DNA of 64,000 nt from Sulfurimonas sp. (GTDB lineage: Bacteria > Campylobacterota > Campylobacteria > Campylobacterales > Sulfurimonadaceae). The translations under genes and the position numbers were made by a program. The notes under the pieces are model-generated. The model did no database searches. It saw only the letters and a program-made list of their open reading frames with translations, and was not told where the DNA came from. Below, piece by piece: positions 40,478 to 64,000 of the stretch. The stretch is from the NCBI RefSeq assembly GCF_041583195.1, contig NZ_JBFHGL010000006.1, forward strand, positions 62,001 through 126,000, read 5' to 3'. Position 1 is the stretch's first letter. Each line of letters starts with the position of its first letter.

Positions 40478-41392
40478 TTATTTTTCATTCAAAAACTCTC
40501 TAACATCTTCAGCTATTTTATCATCCAACCATTTAGGTTCTATAACTCTTAAATGTGGCATCCAATACTTTACGATCGGGATTATCTCCATCTCATAAGT
40601 TATAGTAACTATTATCTCCAAAGAACCGTCTTGATTCACACTATGCAGTTTTTGTGTCGGAAGTGGTTTTCTTCTAAAGTATTTTGCTATATCTGAACCT
40701 ACATACAAGTGTATATCAAAAGGCTCGCGGTCAGATTGAAACCATATTGAGATTGAATCGTTTAACATCTCATCTATCTTAGTGCTTGTTTTAAATACTT
40801 CATCTTTTACTTTTATATTGGATACTTTTTTTAGATATAACTTTCTTACATAGTCATCTTCATCTAGTGCTACAAGATACCAAAACCCTTCATAGTTTAC
40901 TATTTTAAGTGGCTTTAGGATCTCTTTATACGGTTCATTGAACTCATCATCATAGATGCATTCAAGGATGTTTTTATTTTTTATGGCATCTTCAAGTATC
41001 TTTATCTCATCAAACTTATCGCCTATATCTTCGATGTTAAGTTTTGTATAGATTGGGTTTAGTTCATCGTTTTTTAGTTTATCTAACAGTTGGTGTGCTT
41101 TAATGGAGAATTTACCGCCGATGGAGCTTGAAAACTCCTCCAAAATTCCAAGTACAACCTCTTCTTCAAAAGAGTTGTTTTTCTCCAGCTTAAAGCCATC
41201 CTGCATCTTCCATCTTTTAGAGTCTTTATATATTGGAAATGAGCTCAATCTTTCCATATCTCTAAGAATTGTTCTATCTGCAACATTGAATCTTTCTGCT
41301 AACTCTTTTGTAGTCGGTTGTTCTCCATCGTTTAAAATAGAAAGTATATTGATTAGTCTTGTAAGTATTTTGTCATATTCATGTTTTGCCAT
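40478..41392 (-). CDS. HTH-WYL transcriptional regulator 1
   Basis: A protein of about 304 residues with a DeoR-type winged HTH (residues 5-60: TTKELAERFNVADRTILRDM) and a WYL domain in the middle (LKPLKIVNYEGFWYLVALDE) plus a C-terminal WCX-like part. WYL proteins (BrxR, CapW, PafBC groups) sense nucleic acids or damage signals and control defence or damage genes. Palindromes at 41414 and 41439 lie right upstream, so it may control itself. Start ATG at 41392; the nuclease-like gene follows. Confidence 0.88.
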   Translation of the reverse strand: MAKHEYDKILTRLINILSILNDGEQPTTKELAERFNVADRTILRDMERLSSFPIYKDSKRWKMQDGFKLEKNNSFEEEVVLGILEEFSSSIGGKFSIKAHQLLDKLKNDELNPIYTKLNIEDIGDKFDEIKILEDAIKNKNILECIYDDEFNEPYKEILKPLKIVNYEGFWYLVALDEDDYVRKLYLKKVSNIKVKDEVFKTSTKIDEMLNDSISIWFQSDREPFDIHLYVGSDIAKYFRRKPLPTQKLHSVNQDGSLEIIVTITYEMEIIPIVKYWMPHLRVIEPKWLDDKIAEDVREFLNEK

Positions 41393-41413
41393 AAACAAGT
41401 ATATCTAATTTTT

Positions 41414-42992: not shown

Positions 42993-43472
42993 TTGTTGAA
43001 AAAAATTAATTACATCTTTTTTTGGTTTATAGGCTGTTTTGGTATGCTTGGATTTCATAGATTTTATTTAGGTAAAAAAATAAGTGGGTTTATATGGTTG
43101 TTTTCAGCTGGTTTATTCATGATAGGTGCACTTTATGATCTAATTTACATGAATGATGTAATAGCATCATCAGAAGGTAAAGAAAATGAACCTAGTAAAA
43201 ATAAAAAGTCTCAAAAAAAGAAAGAACCTACAAAAACCGTAAAAAAAAGTGCTCCTAAACAAAAAGCTTACACTAATAGTAAGGCAAAAGTTGCTACAGG
43301 AATGAGTATTAGATTTATATTAATTTTTAAAAGTGGTAAATCACAAGATATGACTGAAGATATCAATGGTGTAATTAATCAATATGATGCGAGAAAAATT
43401 ATTGAAGCTAAATACATGAATGAATCGGTACAAAGAATATCATGGGTAAATGACAAAGTTTTATATTCTTAA
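42993..43472 (+). CDS. TM2-domain membrane protein
   Basis: A 159-residue protein with a TM2 domain (residues 10-50: FIGCFGMLGFHRFYLGKKIS then two helices), a lysine-rich linker (about 65-100) and a C-terminal globular part of about 60 residues. TM2 proteins are short membrane proteins with no fixed function. The start is a TTG codon at 42993 or 42996, with AAAAGG upstream. It converges with WYL regulator 2 and overlaps its end by 4 nt. Confidence 0.75.
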   Translation: MLKKINYIFFWFIGCFGMLGFHRFYLGKKISGFIWLFSAGLFMIGALYDLIYMNDVIASSEGKENEPSKNKKSQKKKEPTKTVKKSAPKQKAYTNSKAKVATGMSIRFILIFKSGKSQDMTEDINGVINQYDARKIIEAKYMNESVQRISWVNDKVLYS

Positions 43473-44389
43473 TCTAAATATTCATGAAGCCTTTTTAAAA
43501 ATGACTCTTTTAAAGAGTCTGGCGATATAATTTTTATATGAGGTACCCAGTATCCAATGATAGGAATAATCTCCATATCGTCTGTAACACTTACACTAAT
43601 TTCCATAGAGCCGTCACTGTACTCTTTGATAACTCTCTGTGTTAAAGATATGGGTTTTCTTTTTAAACTTTTAGCCGCGTATTTATCTAAAAATAGTTCA
43701 ACATCATATGGTTTAACATCAGCATTAAACCAAACATTAATTGAGTTATTTAGGTTCTCTTCCAACTCTTTAGAAACTAAGAAGTTTTCATCCAATATTT
43801 GAATATTATTTATACTTTTTAGATGATATTTTTTCAATACATCATTTCTTGAATCTAAAGCTATCAGATACCAATATCCTTCATAGTTAGCAATTTTTAA
43901 AGGTTTCACTCTTATTTCTCTTGTGTACTCTCCGAAGTTATAAACAAATACTATTTGCTGTTTCTCTTTAATACTTCTTTCAAGCATAGCTATATCAGAT
44001 AATTTAGTAGATATATCTTCCATATTTAATTTAGCATAGAATGGATTTAGATCATTATTTTTTATTTTAGAAAGAAGATGTTTTGCTTTAGATGAAAAAT
44101 TAATACCCAGCCCATCAGTCATTTTCTCCAATATGTCTAAAACTATAAGCTCTTCATTATTTGTTGATTTCTCTATTTTATATCCATCCTGCATCTTCCA
44201 TTTTTTCTTATCTTGATATATTGGATACAAGCTTACAAGCCTGTTGTTAAAATCTCTTTGAATTGTTCTCTCACTTACATTAAATTCTTTTGCTAATTCT
44301 TTTACAGATAATTCTTCACCATCATTAAGACGAGCTATGATCGTATTTAACCTTGTTAATGTTTTATCGTAATCGTGTTTATATGCCAT
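43469..44389 (-). CDS. HTH-WYL transcriptional regulator 2
   Basis: A 306-residue paralogue of the regulator at 40478, with the same lay-out: HTH (SVKELAKEFNVSERTIQRDF), WYL domain (VKPLKIANYEGYWYLIALDS) and C-terminal part. The two share many identical blocks (KKWKMQDGYKIEK; EISVSVTDDMEIIPI). Two palindromes lie upstream (44428, 44462). Having two similar regulators with the same operators suggests heterodimers or layered control. Confidence 0.88.
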   Translation of the reverse strand: MAYKHDYDKTLTRLNTIIARLNDGEELSVKELAKEFNVSERTIQRDFNNRLVSLYPIYQDKKKWKMQDGYKIEKSTNNEELIVLDILEKMTDGLGINFSSKAKHLLSKIKNNDLNPFYAKLNMEDISTKLSDIAMLERSIKEKQQIVFVYNFGEYTREIRVKPLKIANYEGYWYLIALDSRNDVLKKYHLKSINNIQILDENFLVSKELEENLNNSINVWFNADVKPYDVELFLDKYAAKSLKRKPISLTQRVIKEYSDGSMEISVSVTDDMEIIPIIGYWVPHIKIISPDSLKESFLKRLHEYLD

Positions 44390-44477: not shown

Positions 44478-44598
44478 AATATACTATTTAAAATATAAGC
44501 TAATGAACAACTGAAGTTCAAGATATAAAACAAGAGAACGTAAAAAGCTTATCAAAAGATAATATTTGATAACATATTTAAGTAATAAGGAAGTATTA

Positions 44599-46077
44599 AT
44601 GAGATTATCTAAGTCACTATATACAAGAGGTTTACAATGTGTTAAGTCTCTATGGCTGAAAAAATATAATAAAGAGATATTAACTCCTCCAGACTCTAGT
44701 GCAGAAGCTATTTTTGAGAGAGGTAATGAAGTTGGAGCTTTGGCTTGTCAACTTTTCCCAAACGGTATAGAGATTGAGTTTAATCCATCCGATTATGATG
44801 GAATGATAAACACTACAAAAACTTTAATAGATGATGGTGTTAACAATATTTATGAAGCATCTTTCAATTATGATGATATTTTTGTAGCAGTAGATATATT
44901 ACACATTAACGATGATGATAGTGTAGAGATATATGAGGTTAAAAGCTCAACAGATGTAAAAGATGTGTACAAACATGATGCAAGTATTCAATACTATGTT
45001 TTAAAAGGACTTGGTTTTAAAGTAAAAAAAGTATCAATTATACATATAAACAATAAGTATGTTAGAGACGAAGAGTTAGAAATAGATAAACTTTTTACAA
45101 TAGCAGATATAACAGAAGAAGTTTTAGAACTTCAAGAAGATATACCAACATATCTAAGAACCTTTAAAACATTTTTAGATGATAAAGAAAATGAGCCTGA
45201 AAAAGAGATAGGCGTACATTGTTCTAATCCTTACGATTGTGATGCAATAGCTTATTGCTGGTCTCATATACCAAAATATAGTATCTTTAATATTTCTAGA
45301 CTAAATGCAAAGAAAAAGTTTGAACTATATAATCAAGGGATTATAAACTTTACAGACATAGCTGACATATCTAGCTTTTCTACAGCTCAACAAGTCCAAA
45401 TAGAATCAGAAGTTAATAATAAGACCATAATAAATAATGAAGCTATAAAAGACTTTCTAGGTGGATTAACTTATCCTATATATCATCTTGATTTTGAAAC
45501 ATTTCAACAGGCTATTCCTGAATGGAAAGGTATAAGTCCTTTTATGCAAATACCGTTTCAATACTCAGTTCATGTCCAACATGAAGACGGTAACTTAGAA
45601 CATAAAGAACATTTAGCTAAAGATGGATTTGATCCAAGATATGAACTTGCAAAAAAGTTAGTAGAAGATATACCTACTGATGTGACAGTACTAGCTTATA
45701 ACATGGGATTTGAAAAAGGTGTGATTAGAAAACTAGCTGAACAGTTTGATGATTTTGCACATCATCTTATGTGCATACATGACAATATACAAGACTTAAT
45801 GACACCATTTCAAAAGAAAGATTACTACACACCATCTATGAGAGGAGGCTACTCTATAAAAAAAGTGCTTCCTGCATTAGTTCCAGATATGGAAAAAGCC
45901 TATAAAGAACTAAGTTTGGTTCATAATGGTGGTGAAGCTATGCAGACATTTGCAAGACTTTCAAAAATGGATGATACGCAGAAGAGTGAATATAGAAATG
46001 CATTACTGGAGTATTGTAAGTTAGATACTTTAGCAATGGTTAAAGTATTGGATAAATTAAAGGAGACTAGTAAATGA
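44599..46077 (+). CDS. DUF2779 two-domain nuclease-like protein
   Basis: A 492-residue protein with two enzyme-like parts. The N-terminal half has RLSKSLYTRGLQCVKSLWLK and VAVDILHINDDDSVEIYEVK (D then E-x-K), as in Cas4/RecB-type nucleases. The C-terminal half holds YPIYHLDFETFQ (D298, E300) and YCKLDTLAM, as in DEDD exonucleases. DUF2779 proteins have this architecture. Start at 44599 (AAGGAAG before ATG). It overlaps mcrB by 4 nt, so it may serve the McrBC system. Confidence 0.85.
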   Translation: MRLSKSLYTRGLQCVKSLWLKKYNKEILTPPDSSAEAIFERGNEVGALACQLFPNGIEIEFNPSDYDGMINTTKTLIDDGVNNIYEASFNYDDIFVAVDILHINDDDSVEIYEVKSSTDVKDVYKHDASIQYYVLKGLGFKVKKVSIIHINNKYVRDEELEIDKLFTIADITEEVLELQEDIPTYLRTFKTFLDDKENEPEKEIGVHCSNPYDCDAIAYCWSHIPKYSIFNISRLNAKKKFELYNQGIINFTDIADISSFSTAQQVQIESEVNNKTIINNEAIKDFLGGLTYPIYHLDFETFQQAIPEWKGISPFMQIPFQYSVHVQHEDGNLEHKEHLAKDGFDPRYELAKKLVEDIPTDVTVLAYNMGFEKGVIRKLAEQFDDFAHHLMCIHDNIQDLMTPFQKKDYYTPSMRGGYSIKKVLPALVPDMEKAYKELSLVHNGGEAMQTFARLSKMDDTQKSEYRNALLEYCKLDTLAMVKVLDKLKETSK

Positions 46078-48434
46078 GCGGAATAATTGAGAATTTGAAA
46101 AATTGGTTAGACAAAGTCTATCAAAAAGATATTAATATTGCATGTTTAGAACTGCCGATTTTAAGTATTTTAGTAAAATATAATGAACCAGTTTCAAGAG
46201 ATGATATTATTGAAGAATTATCTCAGTATGGTAGTTTTGAAAGAGGTGGTTTATCGTTTGATCATTTATGGTCGCAAAGATTTGGAAAAGGTGAAGAAAA
46301 AGATATTTTAAATAGTTTAGTTGAACATGATGGACAAAATGCTGGTGACAAAAAAACAGAATATCAAATTAAAAATACAATTAATAAGCAAGAATTAGAG
46401 GAACTCTTAAAAACATATGATGGAACAAAAATAGAAAACCTAATAAGAAGCAGATTAGAAGCTGTAAAAAAAGTTAAAATATGGAAGCTTGCTCATAGTG
46501 ATCTAGGGGATAAATATAATGAAGCTTTAGCAAAAAATATTGCTACAATAGGAAAAAATACAAAAGCTAAAGCACAAAGTAAAAAAACACAAGCAGAACA
46601 TTTTAAAGAGGCAAACACTGGAGACTATTTCTTCTTACTGAAAAATTCAAATGAAATTGAATTGATAGGAAAGTTTATAGATAATGAAGTATTTGATACA
46701 GATGAATTAAGACATGATTATTTTGGAAGAAAATATGAAAAAATTCATGAAGCAAAAAGTAGACAAATAAATTATGCAGGAAAATGGTGGGCACCATCTG
46801 ATAATTCAACGTTTATAGAAGTTCCAGAAAAAGATTATTTGGAGTTTGAAGAAAAAATTTTAAAACCAAGTTTTGGTATTACTCTAGATGATTTAGACAT
46901 ATCTACAAGTAGAAAAAATACAAAAGACAATAAAGGAAATTCAAGTATGCCAAAAGATACAACACAACCCTTAAACCAAATCCTCTACGGACCTCCAGGT
47001 ACAGGTAAAACATATAATACAATTAATAAAGCACTAGAGATTATTTTTGAAAAAGAAGGTCAAAAAAATCTTGAATTTTATGATTTTGATTTTGATTCAA
47101 AATTAAAAATAACTTATCAAGATGCATTAAAAGAAGAAGATGAACAATATAAAAGACAACTTTTAAAAGGGATCTTTGAGCATTTTGTAGGAACACAAAT
47201 TGAATTTGTCACGTTTCATCAAAGTTATGGATATGAAGAGTTTGTTGAAGGAATAAAAGCAATACCTGCAGGGAAAGAAGGTAATGAAAACGGCAATGAT
47301 ATGATTTATGATATTGTTGATGGTATCTTTAAACAATTATCAGATAAAGCATATAAAAATTATTTGACAAAAAATACTGATGAGACAAAACAGAAAAAGA
47401 AATTTATATTAAATGCTAAATCTTTAAATATTCAAGCAGAACTGATTCAAGAAGATGAGAATACATTTAAAGTATTGAAAGGTTCAAAAATTAGAAAAGG
47501 GGAAGCTGATTCTTTCAAAAATTACAACTATCATGAATTAAAAACTAAAGTTTTAGAAGAAGCAAAATTAAAAGAAGAAAGTGAATTCTATATTTTAGAT
47601 GATGATTATATTTTTCAAAGTTTAAGCGCTGCATCTTCTGTAATACTTGGTAGAATGTCTAATGGTTTGATAGATTGGAAAGAAGTTGTAATTGAAAATG
47701 ATTTATTAGATCGTAAAGATACTAAAGAAATCAAAAACTACATTTTAATAATAGACGAAATAAACCGTGGAAATATCTCTAAGATTTTTGGAGAACTAAT
47801 CACTCTGATTGAACCAAGTAAAAGAATTGGTGCAGAAGAAGCTTTACATGTAAAACTTCCATATTCAAATGACCCTTTTGGTGTACCTTCAAATCTTTAT
47901 ATCATAGGGACTATGAATACGGCTGATAGAAGTATTGCTCTTATGGATACAGCACTTAGAAGAAGATTTGAGTTTACTGAGATGATGCCTGATTCTACAA
48001 CTCTTGATGATATAGGCAATATTGGAGATATCAATATTAAAAGTCTTCTCGAAACTATCAACAAACGCATAGAATACTTATATGATCGAGATCATACTAT
48101 TGGACATGCTTATTTTATGAGCTTAAAAGGGAAAGATGGAGATGAGGCGAAAGCAGAGCTAGATAATATTTTTAGAAATAAAATTATTCCATTACTTCAA
48201 GAATATTTTTACGATGATTGGGAAAAAATACAGATAGTTTTAGGCGACCATCCAGACCAAAAAGCTTCTGATGATGACAAGTTTATAAAAAATATAAAAA
48301 CAGAGGAAAAAATACTGTTTGGCTTTGATCACGAAGAGATAGAAGATGAACAAAACAATTATATTATTAATAAGCCTTTTTCAGTAAAAGCCTATAGCAA
48401 AATTAAAGAGTTCTCTAAAGCCAATGACAATTAA
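46074..48434 (+). CDS. mcrB: McrB-type GTPase with N-terminal EVE-like domain
   Basis: A 786-residue AAA+ protein with Walker A GPPGTGKT (306-313), Walker B LIIDEINRG (D561), and the McrB signature MNTADRS (M614) followed by RRRFEF. N-terminal residues 1-150 look like a winged-helix or helical adaptor, and about 170-270 (NTGDYFFLLKNSNEIELIGK, NYAGKWWAPSDN) like an EVE/PUA-type reader of modified DNA. McrB moves along DNA with GTP and recruits the nuclease McrC. It overlaps both neighbours. Confidence 0.92.
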   Translation: MSGIIENLKNWLDKVYQKDINIACLELPILSILVKYNEPVSRDDIIEELSQYGSFERGGLSFDHLWSQRFGKGEEKDILNSLVEHDGQNAGDKKTEYQIKNTINKQELEELLKTYDGTKIENLIRSRLEAVKKVKIWKLAHSDLGDKYNEALAKNIATIGKNTKAKAQSKKTQAEHFKEANTGDYFFLLKNSNEIELIGKFIDNEVFDTDELRHDYFGRKYEKIHEAKSRQINYAGKWWAPSDNSTFIEVPEKDYLEFEEKILKPSFGITLDDLDISTSRKNTKDNKGNSSMPKDTTQPLNQILYGPPGTGKTYNTINKALEIIFEKEGQKNLEFYDFDFDSKLKITYQDALKEEDEQYKRQLLKGIFEHFVGTQIEFVTFHQSYGYEEFVEGIKAIPAGKEGNENGNDMIYDIVDGIFKQLSDKAYKNYLTKNTDETKQKKKFILNAKSLNIQAELIQEDENTFKVLKGSKIRKGEADSFKNYNYHELKTKVLEEAKLKEESEFYILDDDYIFQSLSAASSVILGRMSNGLIDWKEVVIENDLLDRKDTKEIKNYILIIDEINRGNISKIFGELITLIEPSKRIGAEEALHVKLPYSNDPFGVPSNLYIIGTMNTADRSIALMDTALRRRFEFTEMMPDSTTLDDIGNIGDINIKSLLETINKRIEYLYDRDHTIGHAYFMSLKGKDGDEAKAELDNIFRNKIIPLLQEYFYDDWEKIQIVLGDHPDQKASDDDKFIKNIKTEEKILFGFDHEEIEDEQNNYIINKPFSVKAYSKIKEFSKANDN

Positions 48435-49752
48435 AGAATTCGGATTTCTTCAATATAAAAAAGAAGAAGATAAACACAACTATATCAAACCCGATGCTTT
48501 TGAAGCAATAGAAAAGTTTGTTTTAGAGAATGAAGCAACTGCACAATATCTGAAGATTACAACAAAAAAAGGATATGGCAAAGTTCTTCAAGCTCAAAAC
48601 TATGTAGGTGTCATCCAAACTAAAGATGGTACGACTATAGAGATTTTGCCGAAGATTTCAAGTTTAAAAGACGATAAAAAGTCGGAAGAGAAAACAAAAG
48701 AAGACAAAGCTAAGGAGATATTAATCCGTATGCTGAAAACTCTTAAAAACTCTCCTTTTAAAAACTTCAATATGGCAAATATGAAATCTTCAAAGATGCC
48801 ATTGTTGGAAATATTTATCACTATGTTTTTGGAAGAGTTGTCAAAGCTGATTCAAAAAGGGATAAAAAGCGATTATATCTCAAAAGAGGAAAACCTCAAG
48901 TTCTTAAAAGGTAAGTTGCTTATAGGGCAACAGATCAAATATAATACTGTGCATAAAGAGCGTTTTTTTGTAGACTACCAAGAGTTTTTGAGTGACAGAG
49001 TTGAAAACCGTCTTATCAAAACTACATTGGACTATCTCTATAAAAAGTCTAAATCAAATCGTAATCAACAACGCATACGGGAATTTTTATTCGTGTTTGA
49101 TGAAATATCTATTTGTAGAGATGTAAAAATAGGTTTTAGCAAAGTGAAACTTAACCGTCAAATGAAAGACTACGAACAAGTGCTTTTATGGTGTAAGACA
49201 TTTTTGATAGAGAACTCCTTTTCTCCTTACAAAGGAAACGATGTTGCATTTGCTTTACTGTTTGATATGAATCTACTTTTTGAGAGTTATGTATATGATT
49301 ACTTAAGGAGATATGGAAATTTTAATAGTATTACTGCCCAAGATAAAACTCATCATTTAGCCTATTTGGATGGGAAAGAGAAGAAGTTTCAACTCAAACC
49401 AGATATTGTTATCAATGACGGGGGAATAATCGCAGATACAAAGTGGAAACTACTAAGTGAAGACAAAACCCATCAAGGGATCTCTCAAGCTGATATGTAC
49501 CAGCTCTATGCATATGGTACAAAGTATGATAATTGTAACTATATGTATCTCATATACCCTTACGATGGTATTGAAAATGGAAATTCCTACAAATACTTTT
49601 CTGACAATTTTAATAGCTCTGAAAAACTAACAAAAGAACTTCATTTAAATGTTTTATTTTTTGATATATCACTAGATAAGCCTAGATTTTTTGAAAATGA
49701 TAAAACTAATAATAAAAAGTATAATATTCTAAGTTTCATTAACCAGACATAA
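48424..49752 (+). CDS. mcrC: McrC nuclease subunit
   Basis: A 442-residue McrC protein with an N-terminal domain (FLQYKKEEDKHNYIKPDAFE, then VGVIQTKDGTTIEILPKISS) that meets McrB, and a PD-(D/E)XK nuclease at the C-terminus: D327 in KPDIVI and D338-T-K340 in IIADTKWKLL. It cuts DNA with modified bases when driven by McrB. It overlaps mcrB by 11 nt. The stop codon overlaps the AGAC-type palindrome at 49745. Confidence 0.92.
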   Translation: MTIKEFGFLQYKKEEDKHNYIKPDAFEAIEKFVLENEATAQYLKITTKKGYGKVLQAQNYVGVIQTKDGTTIEILPKISSLKDDKKSEEKTKEDKAKEILIRMLKTLKNSPFKNFNMANMKSSKMPLLEIFITMFLEELSKLIQKGIKSDYISKEENLKFLKGKLLIGQQIKYNTVHKERFFVDYQEFLSDRVENRLIKTTLDYLYKKSKSNRNQQRIREFLFVFDEISICRDVKIGFSKVKLNRQMKDYEQVLLWCKTFLIENSFSPYKGNDVAFALLFDMNLLFESYVYDYLRRYGNFNSITAQDKTHHLAYLDGKEKKFQLKPDIVINDGGIIADTKWKLLSEDKTHQGISQADMYQLYAYGTKYDNCNYMYLIYPYDGIENGNSYKYFSDNFNSSEKLTKELHLNVLFFDISLDKPRFFENDKTNNKKYNILSFINQT

Positions 49753-57538: not shown

Positions 57539-57648
57539 TTTTTGAATTGAATAATGTTAAATTTATAGGGGACATTCCAAATTATTTAAATGTAATTGTG
57601 GTGTTTTTAGATAAAATAGCTAATATTTTACAAACATAGGTATATAAC

Positions 57649-60093
57649 ATGCGAAAAATCCCATTTACAGTATCAGCTAGAACAGCGAGATTAATTGGTA
57701 GAGAAAATATTGCCTCATCTAAAGGCGCTATTGTTGAGCTAGTAAAAAACTGTTATGATGCAGATAGTCCTATTGCCATAATATATTTTAAAAGAATAAT
57801 TGAAACTGTTATTGAAAAAGAAATTATAGATGGAAAAGAAGTAGACGTAGAAAATAAAGTTGATAAAAGTGAGTTGTTTATTATTGATGCTGGTGAAGGT
57901 ATGACGGAGCAAATAATAAAAAAACATTGGATGACTATAGGAACTAATAATAAAGAATCAGATTTTTTTACAAAAAGTGGAAGAGTCAAAGCTGGAGCTA
58001 AAGGAATAGGACGATTTGCATTAGATAAACTTGGTGATAAATGTGAGATGATTACAAAGTTTAATCCTAAAGTCCATAAAGATGTGGATGACAATGGTCA
58101 AGATACAAACTTTAAGGCTTATCAATGGGAAGTAGATTGGACTGACTTTGAAGGTGCTGGAAAAACTATTGATCAAGTTAGTGCGACATTGATTGGTGCA
58201 GAAGAATTAGATTTAAAAGATTATTTATTAAATGAAATTAATGATGAAAATATTAAGAATGTAATACAAAACTATAGTTTTGAATATGGGACCATATTTA
58301 AAATTAGTAGTTTAAGAGATGAGTGGGAAGACTTTTATGTAGAACAGGTTTTTAATGATTTAGAAGTATTAGTTCCCCCAAAAGAACAAAATACTTTTGA
58401 GTTATATCTTTATAGTAGTGAAAATCCAAATGAATATGGACAACTGATAGGTTCTATTTGCGATGATTATGATTATAAATTAGTTGCAAAAGCAGATGAA
58501 AATCAAAAAGTATCTATTCGAATATACAGAGAAGAGTATGACTTAGAAAGAATAAATCCAAAACTATTTGATTATCAAGAAATGAAGGAAGATAAATTTA
58601 CATTAAAGTCATTTCAAAAAGGTTATTGGGATAAAGAAACTACATTTTCTAAATTATTACCAGGTTATGAAGAAGTTGATGCAAAGAATAACTTAGGAAA
58701 TATTGGAACTTTTGAGTTTACATTATATTTTATGAAAAAAGATTATCTGACAAAAGATATTGAAAAGTTTTTTTATAAAAAATTCAATTCTAATGAACGT
58801 AAAGCTTGGCTTGACAAATTTGGTGGAATAAAAATTTTTAGAGATGACTTTAGAGTACGTCCTTATGGAGAATCTAAAGATAGTGCTTTTGATTGGTTAG
58901 GATTAGGTGGTATAAAAAGTAAAAGTCCTGCTCCAATAGCACATAAGTCAAGAGGCTGGAAAGTTGGACCATCACATATATCAGGTGCGATTAATATATC
59001 CAGAATAGGAAATATTAATTTTCAAGATAAATCAAGTAGAGAGGGTTTACAAGAGAATGAAAGCTTCAAAATATTTAAAGAAATAATTATATCTATAATA
59101 AAAGTTTTTGAAAAAGACCGTGCACAAATTGCATATATGATGAATAAATTAGACTATGATGTCAACTTTGATAGAAGACAACAAGAGGAAGCAGACAAAT
59201 TAGCAAAAAGAATATTAGAAGAACAAGAGAGACGAAGAAAAAACAATAAGTCAGGCACAGAAGAAGATTCTGAAAAAATTCAATTGGCACAGTCTAATAA
59301 AGATAAAGATGCAAAAATTGAAAAGTTAGAAGATGAGCAAAAAACACTTAGAGGTATGGCGAGTAGTGGTATTGTTATAGCTTCATTTACTCATGAACTT
59401 GGTAATTTAAATGAAAAGTTACAAAGTAGAATGGAAAAATTAAAACAGTTATTTGCAAGGAAAGTTTCTGAAGATACATTTCAAGATGTACAAGATTATA
59501 TGAATCCTTATATATTGATGGAAGAAATGCAAAAACAAGATAATAAATTAAGTAACTGGTTAAAGTTTTCATTGGCATCAGCAAGAAGAGATAAAAGAAA
59601 AAGAAAAAAAATAAACTTAATAAATTATTTTGAAAATTTTAAAAATTCTTGGGAATCAGTACTCCAACATAGACATATTACTTTTAAACTTAATATATTA
59701 AAAAAAGACTTATATGAAATGAGATTTTTTGAAATAGATATAGATAGTATTTACAATAATTTATTAGTTAATTCAATTGAAGCTATGTCAAAAGAGAAAA
59801 CAAGAGAGATTACAATTAGTTTAAATTCAAATGACAAAGAAATAATTATTGACTATACTGATACTGGAAAAGGCTTATCAAAGGACATAGAAAATCCATA
59901 TGATATATTTGAACCTTTATATACTACAAAAAGAAATAAACATACTGGTGAGGTAATTGGTACAGGTTTAGGAATGTGGATTATAAAAACGATTGTAAAA
60001 GATTATGATGGTAGTTATAGTTTAGTATATCCAAAAAATGGTGGGTTTGGATTAAGAATCTCATTTATTAAAAAATATTTAAATAGGAGTTAG
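57649..60093 (+). CDS. MORC/MutL-like GHKL ATPase fused to a histidine kinase
   Basis: An 814-residue protein with two ATPase parts. The N-terminal one has SKGAIVELVKNCYDADS (N-box with E and N), IIDAGEGMTEQIIKKHW (G1) and KAGAKGIGRFALDK (G2), as in MORC/Hsp90-type clamps. The middle (about 200-490) is an S5-like or transducer region. A coiled coil (about 495-560) leads to a histidine kinase: H-box SFTHELGN (H582), N-box LLVNSIEAMS (N708), DTGKGLSK and GTGLGMWIIK. It heads a four-gene operon with REC, HNH and methyltransferase genes. Confidence 0.85.
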   Translation: MRKIPFTVSARTARLIGRENIASSKGAIVELVKNCYDADSPIAIIYFKRIIETVIEKEIIDGKEVDVENKVDKSELFIIDAGEGMTEQIIKKHWMTIGTNNKESDFFTKSGRVKAGAKGIGRFALDKLGDKCEMITKFNPKVHKDVDDNGQDTNFKAYQWEVDWTDFEGAGKTIDQVSATLIGAEELDLKDYLLNEINDENIKNVIQNYSFEYGTIFKISSLRDEWEDFYVEQVFNDLEVLVPPKEQNTFELYLYSSENPNEYGQLIGSICDDYDYKLVAKADENQKVSIRIYREEYDLERINPKLFDYQEMKEDKFTLKSFQKGYWDKETTFSKLLPGYEEVDAKNNLGNIGTFEFTLYFMKKDYLTKDIEKFFYKKFNSNERKAWLDKFGGIKIFRDDFRVRPYGESKDSAFDWLGLGGIKSKSPAPIAHKSRGWKVGPSHISGAINISRIGNINFQDKSSREGLQENESFKIFKEIIISIIKVFEKDRAQIAYMMNKLDYDVNFDRRQQEEADKLAKRILEEQERRRKNNKSGTEEDSEKIQLAQSNKDKDAKIEKLEDEQKTLRGMASSGIVIASFTHELGNLNEKLQSRMEKLKQLFARKVSEDTFQDVQDYMNPYILMEEMQKQDNKLSNWLKFSLASARRDKRKRKKINLINYFENFKNSWESVLQHRHITFKLNILKKDLYEMRFFEIDIDSIYNNLLVNSIEAMSKEKTREITISLNSNDKEIIIDYTDTGKGLSKDIENPYDIFEPLYTTKRNKHTGEVIGTGLGMWIIKTIVKDYDGSYSLVYPKNGGFGLRISFIKKYLNRS

Positions 60094-60094
60094 C

Positions 60095-60745
60095 ATGGAT
60101 TATAGAATATTGTATATTGATGAAGTTCAAGGCGATAGACATGATTTTCAAAGTTATGTTGAACTAAATAGTGATGAAGGAAAATTTCAAGTAGATGCAA
60201 TAGAACCGGAAGAGAATCTAGAAGAGTTTATTGAAAAAATAAATAATGAGAACTATGATGCAATTATTACAGATCATCAATTAGGGGAAGAAAAACCATC
60301 TATTCAGTATGATGGGGTAGAATTAGTTCAAGCCTTTTTAAAAGTTAGGTTGGATTATCCTTGTTTCATTTTAACTGGATGGGAAGATGATGCTATTAGA
60401 GATGGCTATGATGTGAATATTGTTTATCCTAAAGGCATAAAAAGTATAACAAGAAGTAATGTTGATAAACATCAAGCTGTTTTTATAGATAAGATTGAAA
60501 ATCAAATAAAACACCATAAAGATAAGATTTCTGCATTAGAGTCTGAATATAAAGAATTGCTAAATAAAGAGACATTAGATTCTTTTGAAGATGACAGATT
60601 AGTTGAATTAGATACTATGATTGAGAAGATGACAAATCAAAGTTCTTCTATCCCGAAAGACCTAAAAAAAAGAAATAATTTAGATGAGTTGCATAAAATG
60701 ATTAATAATACGGATACTCTTATTGAAAGATTAAAAGGGTTATAG
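60095..60745 (+). CDS. Response-regulator-like (REC) protein with helical tail
   Basis: A 216-residue protein with a REC domain in residues 1-125. The acidic pocket D9/E10 is in LYIDEVQGD, the likely phosphorylated Asp is D60 (YDAIITDHQLGE), the switch Thr is T94 (FILTGWED) and the conserved Lys is K113 (VYPKGIKS). The remaining 90 residues are helical with no DNA-binding domain. It starts 1 nt after the kinase gene, so a direct phosphorelay is likely. Confidence 0.82.
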   Translation: MDYRILYIDEVQGDRHDFQSYVELNSDEGKFQVDAIEPEENLEEFIEKINNENYDAIITDHQLGEEKPSIQYDGVELVQAFLKVRLDYPCFILTGWEDDAIRDGYDVNIVYPKGIKSITRSNVDKHQAVFIDKIENQIKHHKDKISALESEYKELLNKETLDSFEDDRLVELDTMIEKMTNQSSSIPKDLKKRNNLDELHKMINNTDTLIERLKGL

Positions 60746-60747
60746 TC

Positions 60748-61329
60748 ATGACATACTCAATACAAGAAAAAAAACCGGAAAGAGACTACACTGGGACAAA
60801 GTATAACACTTATGGTGCATATAAACCTTATCTAAGAGAAAATTTCAATAAGAGGTGTGGTTATTGTGATGGACTAGATGTTTATGCTGGAGGATCGCAA
60901 GGATTTCAAATTGACCATTTTAAGCCAAAAAAACTTTTTCCTGATTTAGAAACAGAGTATGAAAATTTAGTTTACTCTTGTCCTTATTGCAATAGGTCAA
61001 AATGGGATTACTGGAGGGATGATAAAGGTTTTATAGACCCTTGTAGTGATTTATATAGTGAAACATTATATAGAAATGATAAAGGACAAATTAAATATTA
61101 TGATGGTTGTGAGCAAGGTGAGTATATACACCAAAAACTCAAATTAGATTTAAGACGACATGAGTTAATATGGATTATAGAAAAGCTTAAAAAACAAAGC
61201 GATGATCTTGATGCTCTATCTGACAGTTTAGGAGAAGACCATCCAGAAGAGTTAACTATATTAAGAGAATTCAAAAATGTACAAAAAGAAATTAAAAAAT
61301 ATACAAATCTTTTTTATGACGAGATATAG
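60748..61329 (+). CDS. HNH endonuclease
   Basis: A 193-residue HNH nuclease: two zinc knuckles C37-x2-C40 and C78-x2-C81, and the catalytic core FQIDHFKPKKLFPDLETEYE (D56-H57) followed by NLVYSCPYCNRSKW (N73, N82). It matches the HNH family that includes PtuB- and retron-linked nucleases. It probably cuts DNA. Placed 2 nt after the REC gene and directly before the methyltransferase gene. Confidence 0.9.
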   Translation: MTYSIQEKKPERDYTGTKYNTYGAYKPYLRENFNKRCGYCDGLDVYAGGSQGFQIDHFKPKKLFPDLETEYENLVYSCPYCNRSKWDYWRDDKGFIDPCSDLYSETLYRNDKGQIKYYDGCEQGEYIHQKLKLDLRRHELIWIIEKLKKQSDDLDALSDSLGEDHPEELTILREFKNVQKEIKKYTNLFYDEI

Positions 61330-63180
61330 TTGAATCAGTCAATATATAATTATTTAAAAAATTATGATAATAATGTCGATTCAATAAATAGGCTTTTAGC
61401 ATCTGCTTTTGTTAATGTTAAAAATATTAGAATAAAGCATAATCAATATATAAAAAGTTTAATAATTACAGAAAATTGTCAAAATGAATATAATAATCTT
61501 CAAGAGTTTATTAAGTTAATAAAGAGAGTAGATAAAGAGTTTTGTTTTGAAGAACTTCTTGAGCTTTTTGAATTTGTTATTTCTCCTTCCGATAAGCTTG
61601 TTAATGGCGCAATTTATACTCCAGAAAATATTAGAAAATATATAACTAAACAATCATTTAACGAACTATCCAATAAATCTATTAATGAAATAAAGATAGC
61701 TGATATTGCTTGTGGCTGTGGAGGATTTTTAATAGATGCTAGTCTTGAACTCAGACAAAAAACAAATAAATCTTTTAAACAAATTTTTCAGGAAAATATT
61801 TTTGGCCTAGATATTCAAAAATATAGTATTGAAAGAACAGAAATATTACTTTCTCTGTTGGCGATTATTCATGGTGAAGATGAAATACAATTTAATTTCA
61901 ATTTATATGCTGCTGATTCATTAGAGTTTGAATGGAAAAAAGAAGATGAACAAATTAAAAAGAATGGTGGTTTTGATTTAATATTAGGTAATCCTCCTTA
62001 TGTTTGTTCAAGAAATATGGATAATAAAACAAAAGAACTTATGAAAAAATGGAGTACAAGTAAAACTGGACATCCTGATTTATATATTCCATTTTTTGAA
62101 ATAGGTCATAAATTATTGACAAATAATGGTGTCTTAGGCTTTATAACTGTAAATACATTTATGAATAGTGTAAATGGTCGAGCTATAAGAGAATACTTTA
62201 GTGAAGAAAAAGTACTCTTAAAAATAATAGATTTTAAAGATGAACAGATATTTAAGTCAAGAATGACATATACGTGTATATGTTTATTGGAAAAGAAGGT
62301 ATCAGATTTTGTGTATTATACCAGTACCAAGGAAGTAAATTTACAAGATGTTTCAACGCTAGAATTTAACAAAGATAGTTATGAAAGTTTAGATACTCAA
62401 AAGGGATGGAGTTTAAAGAATAGTCAGTTAGTAACAAGATTAGAATCCATAGGAAGACCATTTGGAAAAATATATAACACTAAAAGTGGTATAGCCACAT
62501 TAAAAAATCATGTGTATATTTTTAAATCAATTAAAGAAGATAAAAAATATTTTTATATGGAAGATGGAACAGCTATAGAAAAAGATGTATGTAAAGAAAT
62601 TATAAATTCAAATAACTTAAATAGATATGATGATATTGATAATTTGAAAGAAAAAATTATTTTCCCTTATACCCATAATAAAAATAATCAAGCAGTTATT
62701 ATTGAAGAAGAAATATTCTCATTGAAATTTCCTAAAGCATATGCTTATCTACTTACAAAAAAAGAATTACTAGCGACTAGAGATAAGGGAAATGGAAAAT
62801 ATCCTGTTTGGTATGCATTTGGTAGAACACAATCCCTAGATAAGATTAAGCACAAATTATTTTTTCCACAGCTTGTTAAACAAGGCTTTAAAGCTGTATT
62901 GAATAGTGATGAGAACTTGTACTTTTATAATGGAATGGCAGCATATTCAGAAAATAAAAGAAACTTACATATACTTCAAAAGCTTATAGTCTCAAGTGTG
63001 GCATGGAGTTATATAGAAAATAAATGTAAACATTATGCATCAGGATATTTTGGATTAGGGAAAAATTATTTAAAAGACTTTGGAATATATGATTTTACTG
63101 AAAAAGAAGTGAAATTTTTACTTGCTAAAATAAATTATGAGGAACTTGATAATTTTATTACATCCAAATATACAACTTAA
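61330..63180 (+). CDS. N6-adenine DNA methyltransferase (type IIG/Eco57I-like)
   Basis: A 616-residue methyltransferase with AdoMet motif I (IADIACGCGGFLIDA, near 128-142) and catalytic motif IV (LGNPPYVCSRN, near 219). The C-terminal half (about 380-600) looks like a TaqI/Eco57I-type target-recognition domain. There is no nuclease domain; the HNH protein may supply that. TTG start directly after the HNH stop. It probably marks self DNA. Confidence 0.9.
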   Translation: MNQSIYNYLKNYDNNVDSINRLLASAFVNVKNIRIKHNQYIKSLIITENCQNEYNNLQEFIKLIKRVDKEFCFEELLELFEFVISPSDKLVNGAIYTPENIRKYITKQSFNELSNKSINEIKIADIACGCGGFLIDASLELRQKTNKSFKQIFQENIFGLDIQKYSIERTEILLSLLAIIHGEDEIQFNFNLYAADSLEFEWKKEDEQIKKNGGFDLILGNPPYVCSRNMDNKTKELMKKWSTSKTGHPDLYIPFFEIGHKLLTNNGVLGFITVNTFMNSVNGRAIREYFSEEKVLLKIIDFKDEQIFKSRMTYTCICLLEKKVSDFVYYTSTKEVNLQDVSTLEFNKDSYESLDTQKGWSLKNSQLVTRLESIGRPFGKIYNTKSGIATLKNHVYIFKSIKEDKKYFYMEDGTAIEKDVCKEIINSNNLNRYDDIDNLKEKIIFPYTHNKNNQAVIIEEEIFSLKFPKAYAYLLTKKELLATRDKGNGKYPVWYAFGRTQSLDKIKHKLFFPQLVKQGFKAVLNSDENLYFYNGMAAYSENKRNLHILQKLIVSSVAWSYIENKCKHYASGYFGLGKNYLKDFGIYDFTEKEVKFLLAKINYEELDNFITSKYTT

Positions 63181-63188
63181 TAATGTAT

Positions 63189-63299
63189 TTAAAATATACC
63201 GTCAACAAAATCTCGATCACTATCTTTACTAAGTTTTGCATAGCGTTCTGTCATCTTTATGTCACTATGATTCATTAGTTTTTGGATCGTATATATAGT
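63189..63299 (-). pseudogene. C-terminal remnant of a tyrosine recombinase
   Basis: The minus strand reads TIYTIQKLMNHSDIKMTERY then AKLSKDSDRDFVDGIF and a stop at 63189. This is the His-x-Tyr end (MNHSDIKMTERYAKL) of a phage-type integrase, but no other part of the gene remains upstream. It suggests a decayed element on the right of the four-gene operon. Confidence 0.7.
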
Positions 63300-64000
63300 G
63301 TAAGCATCCCCTCAATCTATACCATAAAACATGTTCAGACCACGCTACTTCAAAAGTATATGAAGTATCAGTTAAAGGCAGTTCTCTTCCAAGTCATCCA
63401 ACAGGTATATGTATGGGATATATATGTGAATAATACAATGGATGGATACAGAAGAAAATCTCAGCAGACATATCAAATGCCAATATAGTTATAGGGAGAC
63501 CTATAATGTGTCAATAAATTATACGGAGTAGTTATTAAACTTCTCTGTATTTAAGTTACTCTTTTTTACCTTCTATGTAATTGGTGATTGTATCTTTTAT
63601 GTTTGTAACTCAATTTGTAGTTAATGGAAAAGATGGGGAATTATTATATAATGAACTTAGATATGTTTTTGGTGAGCCATTTGATGTTGCTGTTGACTTA
63701 CATGTCGAAATAAAACAGCTAAAAGTTAGAGATAGATTAATGGTGGCTAATTAGAGTACATTAAAATTGTTCCTTTACAAAAAAATTTCAATCCAACGTA
63801 TATATATACGATAATTACTCTTATGAGCAATGGTTAAAAACTGATAGTATCAAAGAGTTAAACTCAAACTTTTTTACAAAATTAGTGATGAACCACTTTA
63901 GACCATTTATAGTGGAGGATTGTTCTATTCTTATTACAAGTAGCTATCTCGTCACCAGATATAGAACTGATATAACATAATAATTTGTAAAATAAAAAAA
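63300..64000. other. Gene debris to the window end
   Basis: No intact gene. Short open stretches have coding-like sense: HATSKVYEVSVKGSSLPSHP then TGICMGYICE (near 63340-63430, plus strand), a 51-codon frame from ATG 63599 to 63754 (MFVTQFVVNGKDGELLYNEL), and a frame ending at 63980 (YDNYSYEQWLKTDSIKELNS). They look like scraps of more than one former gene. Confidence 0.45.

What the first reader, a model, noticed from the sequence alone, without database searches (positions are those of the whole stretch)
57649..63180. Four-gene operon: MORC-type ATPase/histidine kinase fusion, response regulator, HNH nuclease and adenine methyltransferase
The genes are spaced by 0-2 nt and form one unit. 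Seen directly: two GHKL ATPase modules in one protein with a full H-box (H582), a REC domain with D60, T94 and K113, an HNH core, and methyltransferase motifs I and IV. MORC/MutL-like ATPases are known next to restriction-modification genes; I know of no described case where the ATPase is joined to a histidine kinase and a partner REC protein. Inference: DNA sensing by the clamp changes REC phosphorylation, which licenses the HNH nuclease, while the methyltransferase protects self DNA. It would be a restriction system with phosphorelay control.
Basis: partly seen in the sequence, partly recalled or inferred. Interest (0 to 1): 0.85.

Follow-up and report, generated by a model that had tools for sequence, protein, structure and literature searches.

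The report
Kinase-controlled restriction cassette with MORC ATPase
Four adjacent bacterial genes encode a DNA-clamp ATPase fused to a signalling kinase, its receiver partner, a DNA-cutting enzyme and a DNA-marking enzyme; together they look like a mobile anti-virus restriction system whose cutter is switched by protein phosphorylation, a little-studied kind that was predicted in 2021 but, as far as I could find, never tested.

Summary
At 57649-63180 four same-strand genes spaced 1, 2 and 0 nt encode: an 814-aa protein with a MORC-type GHKL/S5 module, a DHp helix pair carrying H582 and a kinase CA domain; a receiver (D60, T94, K113) with a helical tail and no DNA-binding domain; a PtuB-like HNH nuclease; and a stand-alone Eco57I-type adenine methyltransferase.

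It recurs: 18 loci (Campylobacterota, Bacteroidota, Alphaproteobacteria; plasmids; contigs with phage genes) keep HK-REC-HNH adjacent. H582, D60 and T94 are invariant in the 14 systems aligned. In an HNH-anchored search the 10 strongest hits all lie in this cassette, the 12 weak ones do not. The methyltransferase is nearly always present but is replaced independently of the other three genes.

These proteins do not match the 2021 Pfam models and PADLOC has no model for the kinase, so this is a distinct, apparently unnamed subtype. Best explanation: a phosphorelay-gated restriction cassette. Activity and polarity of the switch are untested.

The parts
57649..60093 (+). Gene 1: paraMORC-type GHKL ATPase fused to a histidine kinase (814 aa)
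   Evidence: Pfam HATPase_c_3 + HATPase_c; PDB profile matches to DHp-CA kinases; Foldseek to HK853/ZraS and SMCHD1/MORC2; conserved in 14 systems
57715..58071 (+). N-terminal GHKL nucleotide-binding domain (aa 23-141; motifs ELVKNCYDAD, DxGxGM, GAKGIGRFA intact)
   Evidence: PF13589 E 2e-11; motif columns
59059..59364 (+). Long helical linker between the S5-like region and the DHp (aa 471-572)
   Evidence: AlphaFold2 model
59371..59577 (+). DHp helix pair (aa 575-643) with phospho-acceptor H582 (codon 59392-59394)
   Evidence: Model helices 575-605 and 620-643; profile alignment through the DHp of HK853; H582 invariant in 14/14
59737..60045 (+). Kinase CA domain (HATPase_c, aa 697-799; N, G1, F and G2 boxes)
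   Evidence: PF02518 E 6e-15; boxes
60095..60745 (+). Gene 2: receiver protein (216 aa); D60 codon 60272-60274; tail aa 120-215 is a three-helix extension with no DNA-binding domain
60748..61329 (+). Gene 3: HNH nuclease (193 aa), PtuB/TIGR02646-like, core aa 37-85
   Evidence: Pfam HNH; PADLOC PtuB1 E 1e-23; PDB retron Ec78/PtuB E 1e-6
61330..63180 (+). Gene 4: stand-alone Eco57I-type N6-adenine DNA methyltransferase (616 aa, TTG start; NPPY motif 61990-62001)
   Evidence: Pfam Eco57I E 5e-35; PADLOC MTase_II E 3e-102 over aa 39-615; PDB CamA and BseCI
57579..63210 (+). Extent of the cassette shared with the Campylobacterales MAG locus L003 (about 70 nt of leader and 30 nt of trailer included; flanks unrelated)
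   Evidence: blastn window vs L003; leader alignment
63192..63311 (-). C-terminal remnant of a tyrosine recombinase/integrase next to the cassette (assigned by eye, broken upstream)
   Evidence: Translation ...QKLMNHSDIKMTERYAKLSKDSDRDFVDGIF*

Best explanation
A mobile anti-virus/anti-plasmid restriction cassette in which an intracellular phosphorelay gates an HNH nuclease. The MORC-like ATPase-kinase, probably a dimer, is the sensor: its N-terminal GHKL/S5 module is expected to close as an ATP-driven clamp on DNA, and the state of the clamp is passed through the long helical linker to the DHp/CA module, setting the phosphorylation of H582 and hence of D60 on the receiver. The receiver's helical tail, with no DNA-binding domain, then acts on the HNH protein and releases or recruits it for cutting. 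The adenine methyltransferase marks self DNA and supplies the site specificity, because the small HNH protein shows no DNA-recognition domain of its own. Shown here: the domains, the conserved catalytic and phospho-acceptor residues, the receiver fold, constant HK-REC-HNH linkage, independent replacement of the methyltransferase, and carriage on plasmids and phage-like contigs. Inferred: defence activity, DNA as the signal, the REC-HNH contact, and that phosphorylation (rather than dephosphorylation) switches the nuclease on.
For: Architecture and folds. Invariant H582, N-box, G2, D9, D60 and T94 in 14 systems. HK-REC-HNH adjacent in 18/18 loci. HNH-anchored scan: the 10 best hits all in this cassette, the 12 weak ones in none. 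REC and HNH co-diverge beyond what HK divergence explains (partial Mantel 0.41, p 0.003) whereas the methyltransferase does not (0.009, p about 0.44). PtuB-type nucleases are defence effectors in Septu and retron Ec78. Plasmid, phage-tail, phage-head and integrase contexts; cassette shared as a 5.6-kb unit with unrelated flanks. A McrBC system lies about 8 kb upstream. A DNA-activated GHKL kinase controlling an immune operon has been shown for CapK (PMC13373217).
Against: No experiment on this subtype was found. Nothing shows that the kinase phosphorylates, that DNA is the signal, or that REC touches HNH. The single-chain kinase model has low confidence just before the H-box (pLDDT below 50 at aa 558-581) and pTM 0.55. 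The receiver is below Pfam's curated cut-off. HNH could still be a sequence-specific type II enzyme. The Mantel test uses only 14 systems.
Confidence: 0.6

Rival explanations
1. An ordinary type II restriction-modification pair (HNH = sequence-specific endonuclease, gene 4 = cognate methyltransferase), with the kinase/receiver pair as a modulator of expression or activity that is not needed for cutting.
For: HNH and methyltransferase genes are adjacent in most loci; HNH-type type II enzymes exist (knowledge: KpnI, PacI).
Against: The methyltransferase is replaced while HK, REC and HNH stay related (L012/L017 vs L018: HK 45-48%, HNH 43-46%, MTase 20-21%), which a nuclease with its own fixed site should not tolerate; HNH is 193 aa with no recognition domain found; REC has no DNA-binding output; HNH of this subfamily was not found without HK and REC.
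Confidence: 0.17
2. Reverse polarity: in uninfected cells the ATPase-kinase keeps the receiver phosphorylated and the HNH nuclease inhibited; clamp loss, ATP drop or sensor inactivation during infection lets the receiver lose phosphate and frees the nuclease (possibly an abortive-infection response).
For: Same anatomy; many histidine kinases are bifunctional kinase/phosphatases (knowledge); PtuB-type HNH proteins in Septu and retrons work inside larger complexes (knowledge).
Against: No sequence feature decides polarity; the invariant receiver residues fit both.
Confidence: 0.13
3. A mobile-element maintenance or epigenetic regulation module in which the two-component pair senses host methylation state, not infection.
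For: Carried on plasmids and phage-like contigs; restriction-modification systems can act as selfish elements (argued in PMC8011034).
Against: Copies in a Campylobacterales MAG contig among metabolic genes (L003) and beside mnmG in G370 (L018), without an element identified there; does not exclude defence.
Confidence: 0.1

Closest known systems
HEF_HK / Response_reg_2 two-component-like pairs linked to restriction-modification (Bellieny-Rabelo et al. 2021, PMC8011034)
   Same: HATPase_c_3 + DHp + HATPase_c kinase, adjacent receiver protein, neighbourhoods rich in DNA methyltransferases and nucleases
   Different: No member scanned here matches PF19191 or PF19192; receiver of 206-232 aa versus a 600-aa query protein; N6-adenine Eco57I-type methyltransferase and PtuB-like HNH instead of mainly C5 methylase and Vsr/HNH_2
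paraMORC ATPases in restriction-modification operons (Iyer et al. 2008, PMC2292703)
   Same: GHKL + S5 ATPase beside methylases and, for paraMORC1, HNH nucleases; a C-terminal extension was noted
   Different: No receiver, response regulator or two-component role is mentioned there; no helicase or separate MORC partner in this cassette
Septu / retron Ec78 PtuB HNH nuclease
   Same: Same HNH subfamily (PADLOC PtuB E 1e-23, PDB E 1e-6)
   Different: No PtuA ABC ATPase, no reverse transcriptase among the four genes; the partner is a receiver plus ATPase-kinase, and a methyltransferase is present
Detocs (defensive two-component system)
   Same: Two-component-type proteins inside a defence operon
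   Different: Three genes, with an ATP-cleaving PNP effector in the best-described system; no nuclease or methyltransferase
CapK/CapS (PMC13373217)
   Same: GHKL kinase activated by DNA that controls an immune pathway
   Different: Serine kinase acting on a transcriptional repressor; no receiver and no restriction genes inside the pair
GHKL-Shedu (VcSduA, paraMORC3-like; PMC12137116)
   Same: A MORC-like GHKL ATPase thought to control a nuclease, shown to be anti-phage
   Different: Single protein with a PD-(D/E)xK nuclease; no kinase, receiver or methyltransferase

Membership tests
HEF_HK / Response_reg_2 TCS-like systems (2021) | N-terminal HATPase_c_3, DHp, C-terminal HATPase_c in one protein | tested here: met
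HEF_HK / Response_reg_2 TCS-like systems (2021) | Match to PF19191 (HEF_HK) at the curated cut-off | tested here: not met
   No match for the window protein or 8 relatives; no hit over cut-off in 9 genomes
HEF_HK / Response_reg_2 TCS-like systems (2021) | Adjacent protein matching PF19192 (Response_reg_2) | tested here: not met
   No match for the receiver or 8 relatives; own genome has nothing over cut-off
HEF_HK / Response_reg_2 TCS-like systems (2021) | Adjacent receiver with conserved Asp/Thr/Lys, in a restriction-modification neighbourhood | tested here: met
   D60 and T94 14/14, K113 13/14; methyltransferase and HNH adjacent
MORC / paraMORC GHKL ATPases | GHKL motifs plus S5-type second domain, similar to MORC/SMCHD1 structures | tested here: met
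   Motifs intact; Foldseek SMCHD1 and MORC2 over about 490-530 columns
MORC family proper | GhXhhpXXRhl motif of the S5 domain (Iyer 2008) | tested here: inconclusive
   Block is G-I-K/R-h-[FY]-R-D-x-F-x-V-R-P-Y-G, similar but shifted by one residue; compared by eye; fits paraMORC better than MORC
Canonical two-component system | Phospho-acceptor His in the DHp and Asp in the REC, with CA boxes | tested here: met
   phosphotransfer itself not testable here
Septu | PtuB HNH together with PtuA ATPase | tested here: not met
   PtuB-like yes; no PtuA gene among the four
Type II restriction-modification system | DNA methyltransferase plus cognate site-specific endonuclease | tested here: inconclusive
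   Methyltransferase met; site specificity of HNH not testable, and MTase replacement argues against it
PADLOC-listed defence systems | Kinase and receiver models present in the library | tested here: not met
   Kinase 0 hits; receiver only weak matches to PtuA/LmuB coils
Detocs | PNP (ATP-cleaving) effector of the best-described system | tested here: not met
   Effector is HNH

The most novel reading that the evidence does not exclude
A restriction system in which the nuclease has no site specificity of its own: an interchangeable methyltransferase defines self, a MORC-like DNA clamp senses its absence or invader replication, and a true His-Asp phosphorelay carries that signal to the nuclease. 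To my knowledge it would be the first restriction system licensed by two-component signalling.
Probability: 0.4. Interest if true: 0.85.

Novelty: new variant of a known kind. Interest (0 to 1): 0.55.

Why it matters
Predicted kinase/receiver/MORC systems next to restriction genes have been known from sequence since 2021, but in the literature searched here I found no mechanism for them. This compact four-gene subtype, with a receiver that has no DNA-binding output and a nuclease that is always beside it, makes the question testable: does His-Asp signalling directly switch a restriction nuclease? If so, it links bacterial two-component signalling, the MORC clamps that also silence genes in animals and plants, and restriction in one device. 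Independent replacement of the methyltransferase suggests an exchangeable specificity module.

Tried and rejected
Filing it as HEF_HK/Response_reg_2: rejected because no member matches either Pfam model. Filing it as Septu: rejected, no PtuA. A literature precedent for the exact four-gene order: not found in eight searches; a 2026 DefensePredictor figure legend lists HATPase and REC among predicted but unvalidated domains, and the gene content of that figure could not be read. Weak PADLOC hits of the receiver tail to the PtuA/LmuB C-terminus (E 6e-3 to 7e-4): tempting as an HNH-binding adaptor, but the PDB profile search gave only unrelated coiled-coil matches for the tail; left as speculation. 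Reading the high identity between window and L003 at both ends of the cassette as selection: rejected, because third codon positions are also conserved there (mostly 0.8-0.97, against mostly 0.45-0.78 in the middle), which indicates recombination. A receiver-anchored collection scan failed. The promoter/terminator scan gave no signal above chance.
Full report
1. Observation. The four ORFs exist exactly as described: 57649-60093, 60095-60745, 60748-61329 and 61330-63180, all on the + strand with gaps of 1, 2 and 0 nt. Pfam finds HATPase_c_3 and HATPase_c in the first, HNH in the third, and Eco57I/N6_Mtase in the fourth; the second is a sub-threshold Response_reg match. The fourth is a stand-alone methyltransferase: PADLOC's MTase_II model covers aa 39-615, and its solved relatives are CamA and BseCI (protein names partly from my own knowledge).

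2. Kinase and receiver are real. A profile of nine relatives aligns with solved kinases across DHp and CA (HK853, E 6e-14). The AlphaFold2 model (pLDDT 74.7) has a DHp-like helix pair with H582 in the first helix, and Foldseek returns ZraS, HK853 and CpxA for the C-terminal half and SMCHD1 and MORC2 over a longer stretch that includes the ATPase module. The receiver model (pLDDT 79.6) is a receiver fold followed by three helices (aa 120-215); PorX, DctD, PhoB and CheY-like receivers are the best matches. No DNA-binding output domain was found. In 14 systems H582, N704, N708, D9, D60 and T94 are invariant and K113 is kept in 13. In Salipiger the kinase gene is cut by an IS66 element, which explains its missing N-terminal motif.

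3. Recurrence. Relatives with full-length kinase similarity were found in a Campylobacterales MAG (L003), two further genomes of the same order (L017, L018), plasmids of Bacteroides finegoldii, Ensifer, Rhizobium and Salipiger, and IMG/VR contigs (L022-L028). All have kinase, receiver and HNH adjacent. An independent scan anchored on HNH gave 22 loci: the 10 best (E 6e-18 or better) are all in the cassette, three of them new (L043, L045, L047), and the 12 weak ones have no kinase or receiver nearby. In total HK-REC-HNH adjacency is 18 of 18. A methyltransferase follows HNH in most loci, precedes the kinase in L018, L024, L027 and L043, would lie beyond the contig end in L045, and in Rhizobium (L014) is a different enzyme behind a HTH gene. 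In the phylum sample, 3 of 397 genomes carry the close family and the other same-genus genomes listed lack it, i.e. sporadic acquisition. That the host order is Campylobacterales is an inference from a same-order genome (G192) sharing 92% identity over 10 kb with a Campylobacter coli plasmid.

4. Mobility and modularity. Homology with L003 covers window 57579-63210 only, with unrelated flanks: a discrete 5.6-kb unit. Within it, kinase aa 1-120 and methyltransferase aa 81-600 are 91-98% identical in DNA, while the stretch between (rest of the kinase, receiver, HNH, first 80 aa of the methyltransferase) is 53-83%; third codon positions follow, so this is recombination. Kinase, receiver and HNH diverge together; the methyltransferase does not (partial Mantel controlling for kinase: REC-HNH 0.41, p 0.003; REC-MT and HNH-MT about 0.01, p about 0.44). 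For example L017 and L018 share 48% (kinase) and 43% (HNH) but 21% in the methyltransferase. The window's methyltransferase also has relatives (56-57% identity) in two genomes beside a different kinase/receiver pair without HNH (L020, L021). So the marking enzyme is exchangeable while kinase, receiver and nuclease form the working core. Phage context: tape-measure and tail genes beside L023, a major head protein near L025, an integrase beside L027. In the window a McrBC type IV system lies about 8 kb upstream, and a broken tyrosine-recombinase end follows the cassette (assigned by eye).

5. Mechanism. Shown: domains, residues, linkage, modularity. Established knowledge: GHKL/S5 ATPases dimerise on ATP and can clamp DNA; DHp/CA kinases pass phosphate from His to a receiver Asp; PtuB-type HNH proteins are defence effectors. 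Inference: the clamp senses invading DNA and sets receiver phosphorylation; the receiver's helical tail acts on HNH; the methyltransferase protects self and defines the site. The polarity of the switch is unknown. Rivals are a conventional type II pair with an accessory regulator, reverse polarity, and a maintenance module.

6. Comparison and novelty. Bellieny-Rabelo et al. 2021 (PMC8011034) reported HATPase_c_3+HEF_HK+HATPase_c kinases linked (91.6%) to Response_reg_2 proteins in restriction-modification neighbourhoods and proposed a paraMORC-derived two-component system; Iyer et al. 2008 (PMC2292703) noted paraMORC1 with HNH. But the window's proteins and their relatives do not match PF19191 or PF19192, PADLOC has no model for the kinase, and literature searches found no named system with this order. 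Verdict: new variant of a known, untested kind.

7. Limits. No complex prediction, no DefenseFinder or REBASE look-up, no experiment; 14-18 loci; the kinase model is weak around the H-box.

Noticed in passing
window 44566-49752: McrBC type IV restriction system (McrB-like AAA_5/DUF4357 protein and McrC) downstream of a DUF2779 gene, with WYL regulators at 40478-41398 and 43469-44389: a defence-rich neighbourhood.
   Followed up: partly
window 63192-63311, minus strand: C-terminal end of a tyrosine recombinase with no intact gene upstream of it: a degraded integrase next to the cassette.
   Followed up: partly
L020:6774-12707 and L021:6441-12396: A second type: paraMORC-kinase, 365-383 aa receiver-like protein, a 230-251 aa protein with no Pfam hit (the L020 copy also has no PADLOC hit), and a methyltransferase 56-57% identical to the window's. 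The unknown protein sits where the HNH would be and may be an unrecognised nuclease.
   Followed up: partly
L016:7971-14346 and L019:1979-8478: Campylobacter conjugative pTet plasmids and a same-order genome carry a related kinase + response regulator + C5 methyltransferase + AAA ATPase block, 92% identical between them over 10 kb.
   Followed up: partly
L015:5451-8094: IS66 insertion inside the kinase gene of the Salipiger plasmid copy while receiver, HNH and methyltransferase stay open: a possible natural kinase knock-out.
   Followed up: no
L014:7941-13814: Rhizobium phaseoli copy has the kinase split in two ORFs and a HTH gene plus a different methyltransferase after HNH.
   Followed up: no
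window 57649-63180 vs L003:8001-13557: Recombination mosaic: kinase aa 1-120 and methyltransferase aa 81-600 at 91-98% DNA identity, the middle at 53-83%.
   Followed up: yes
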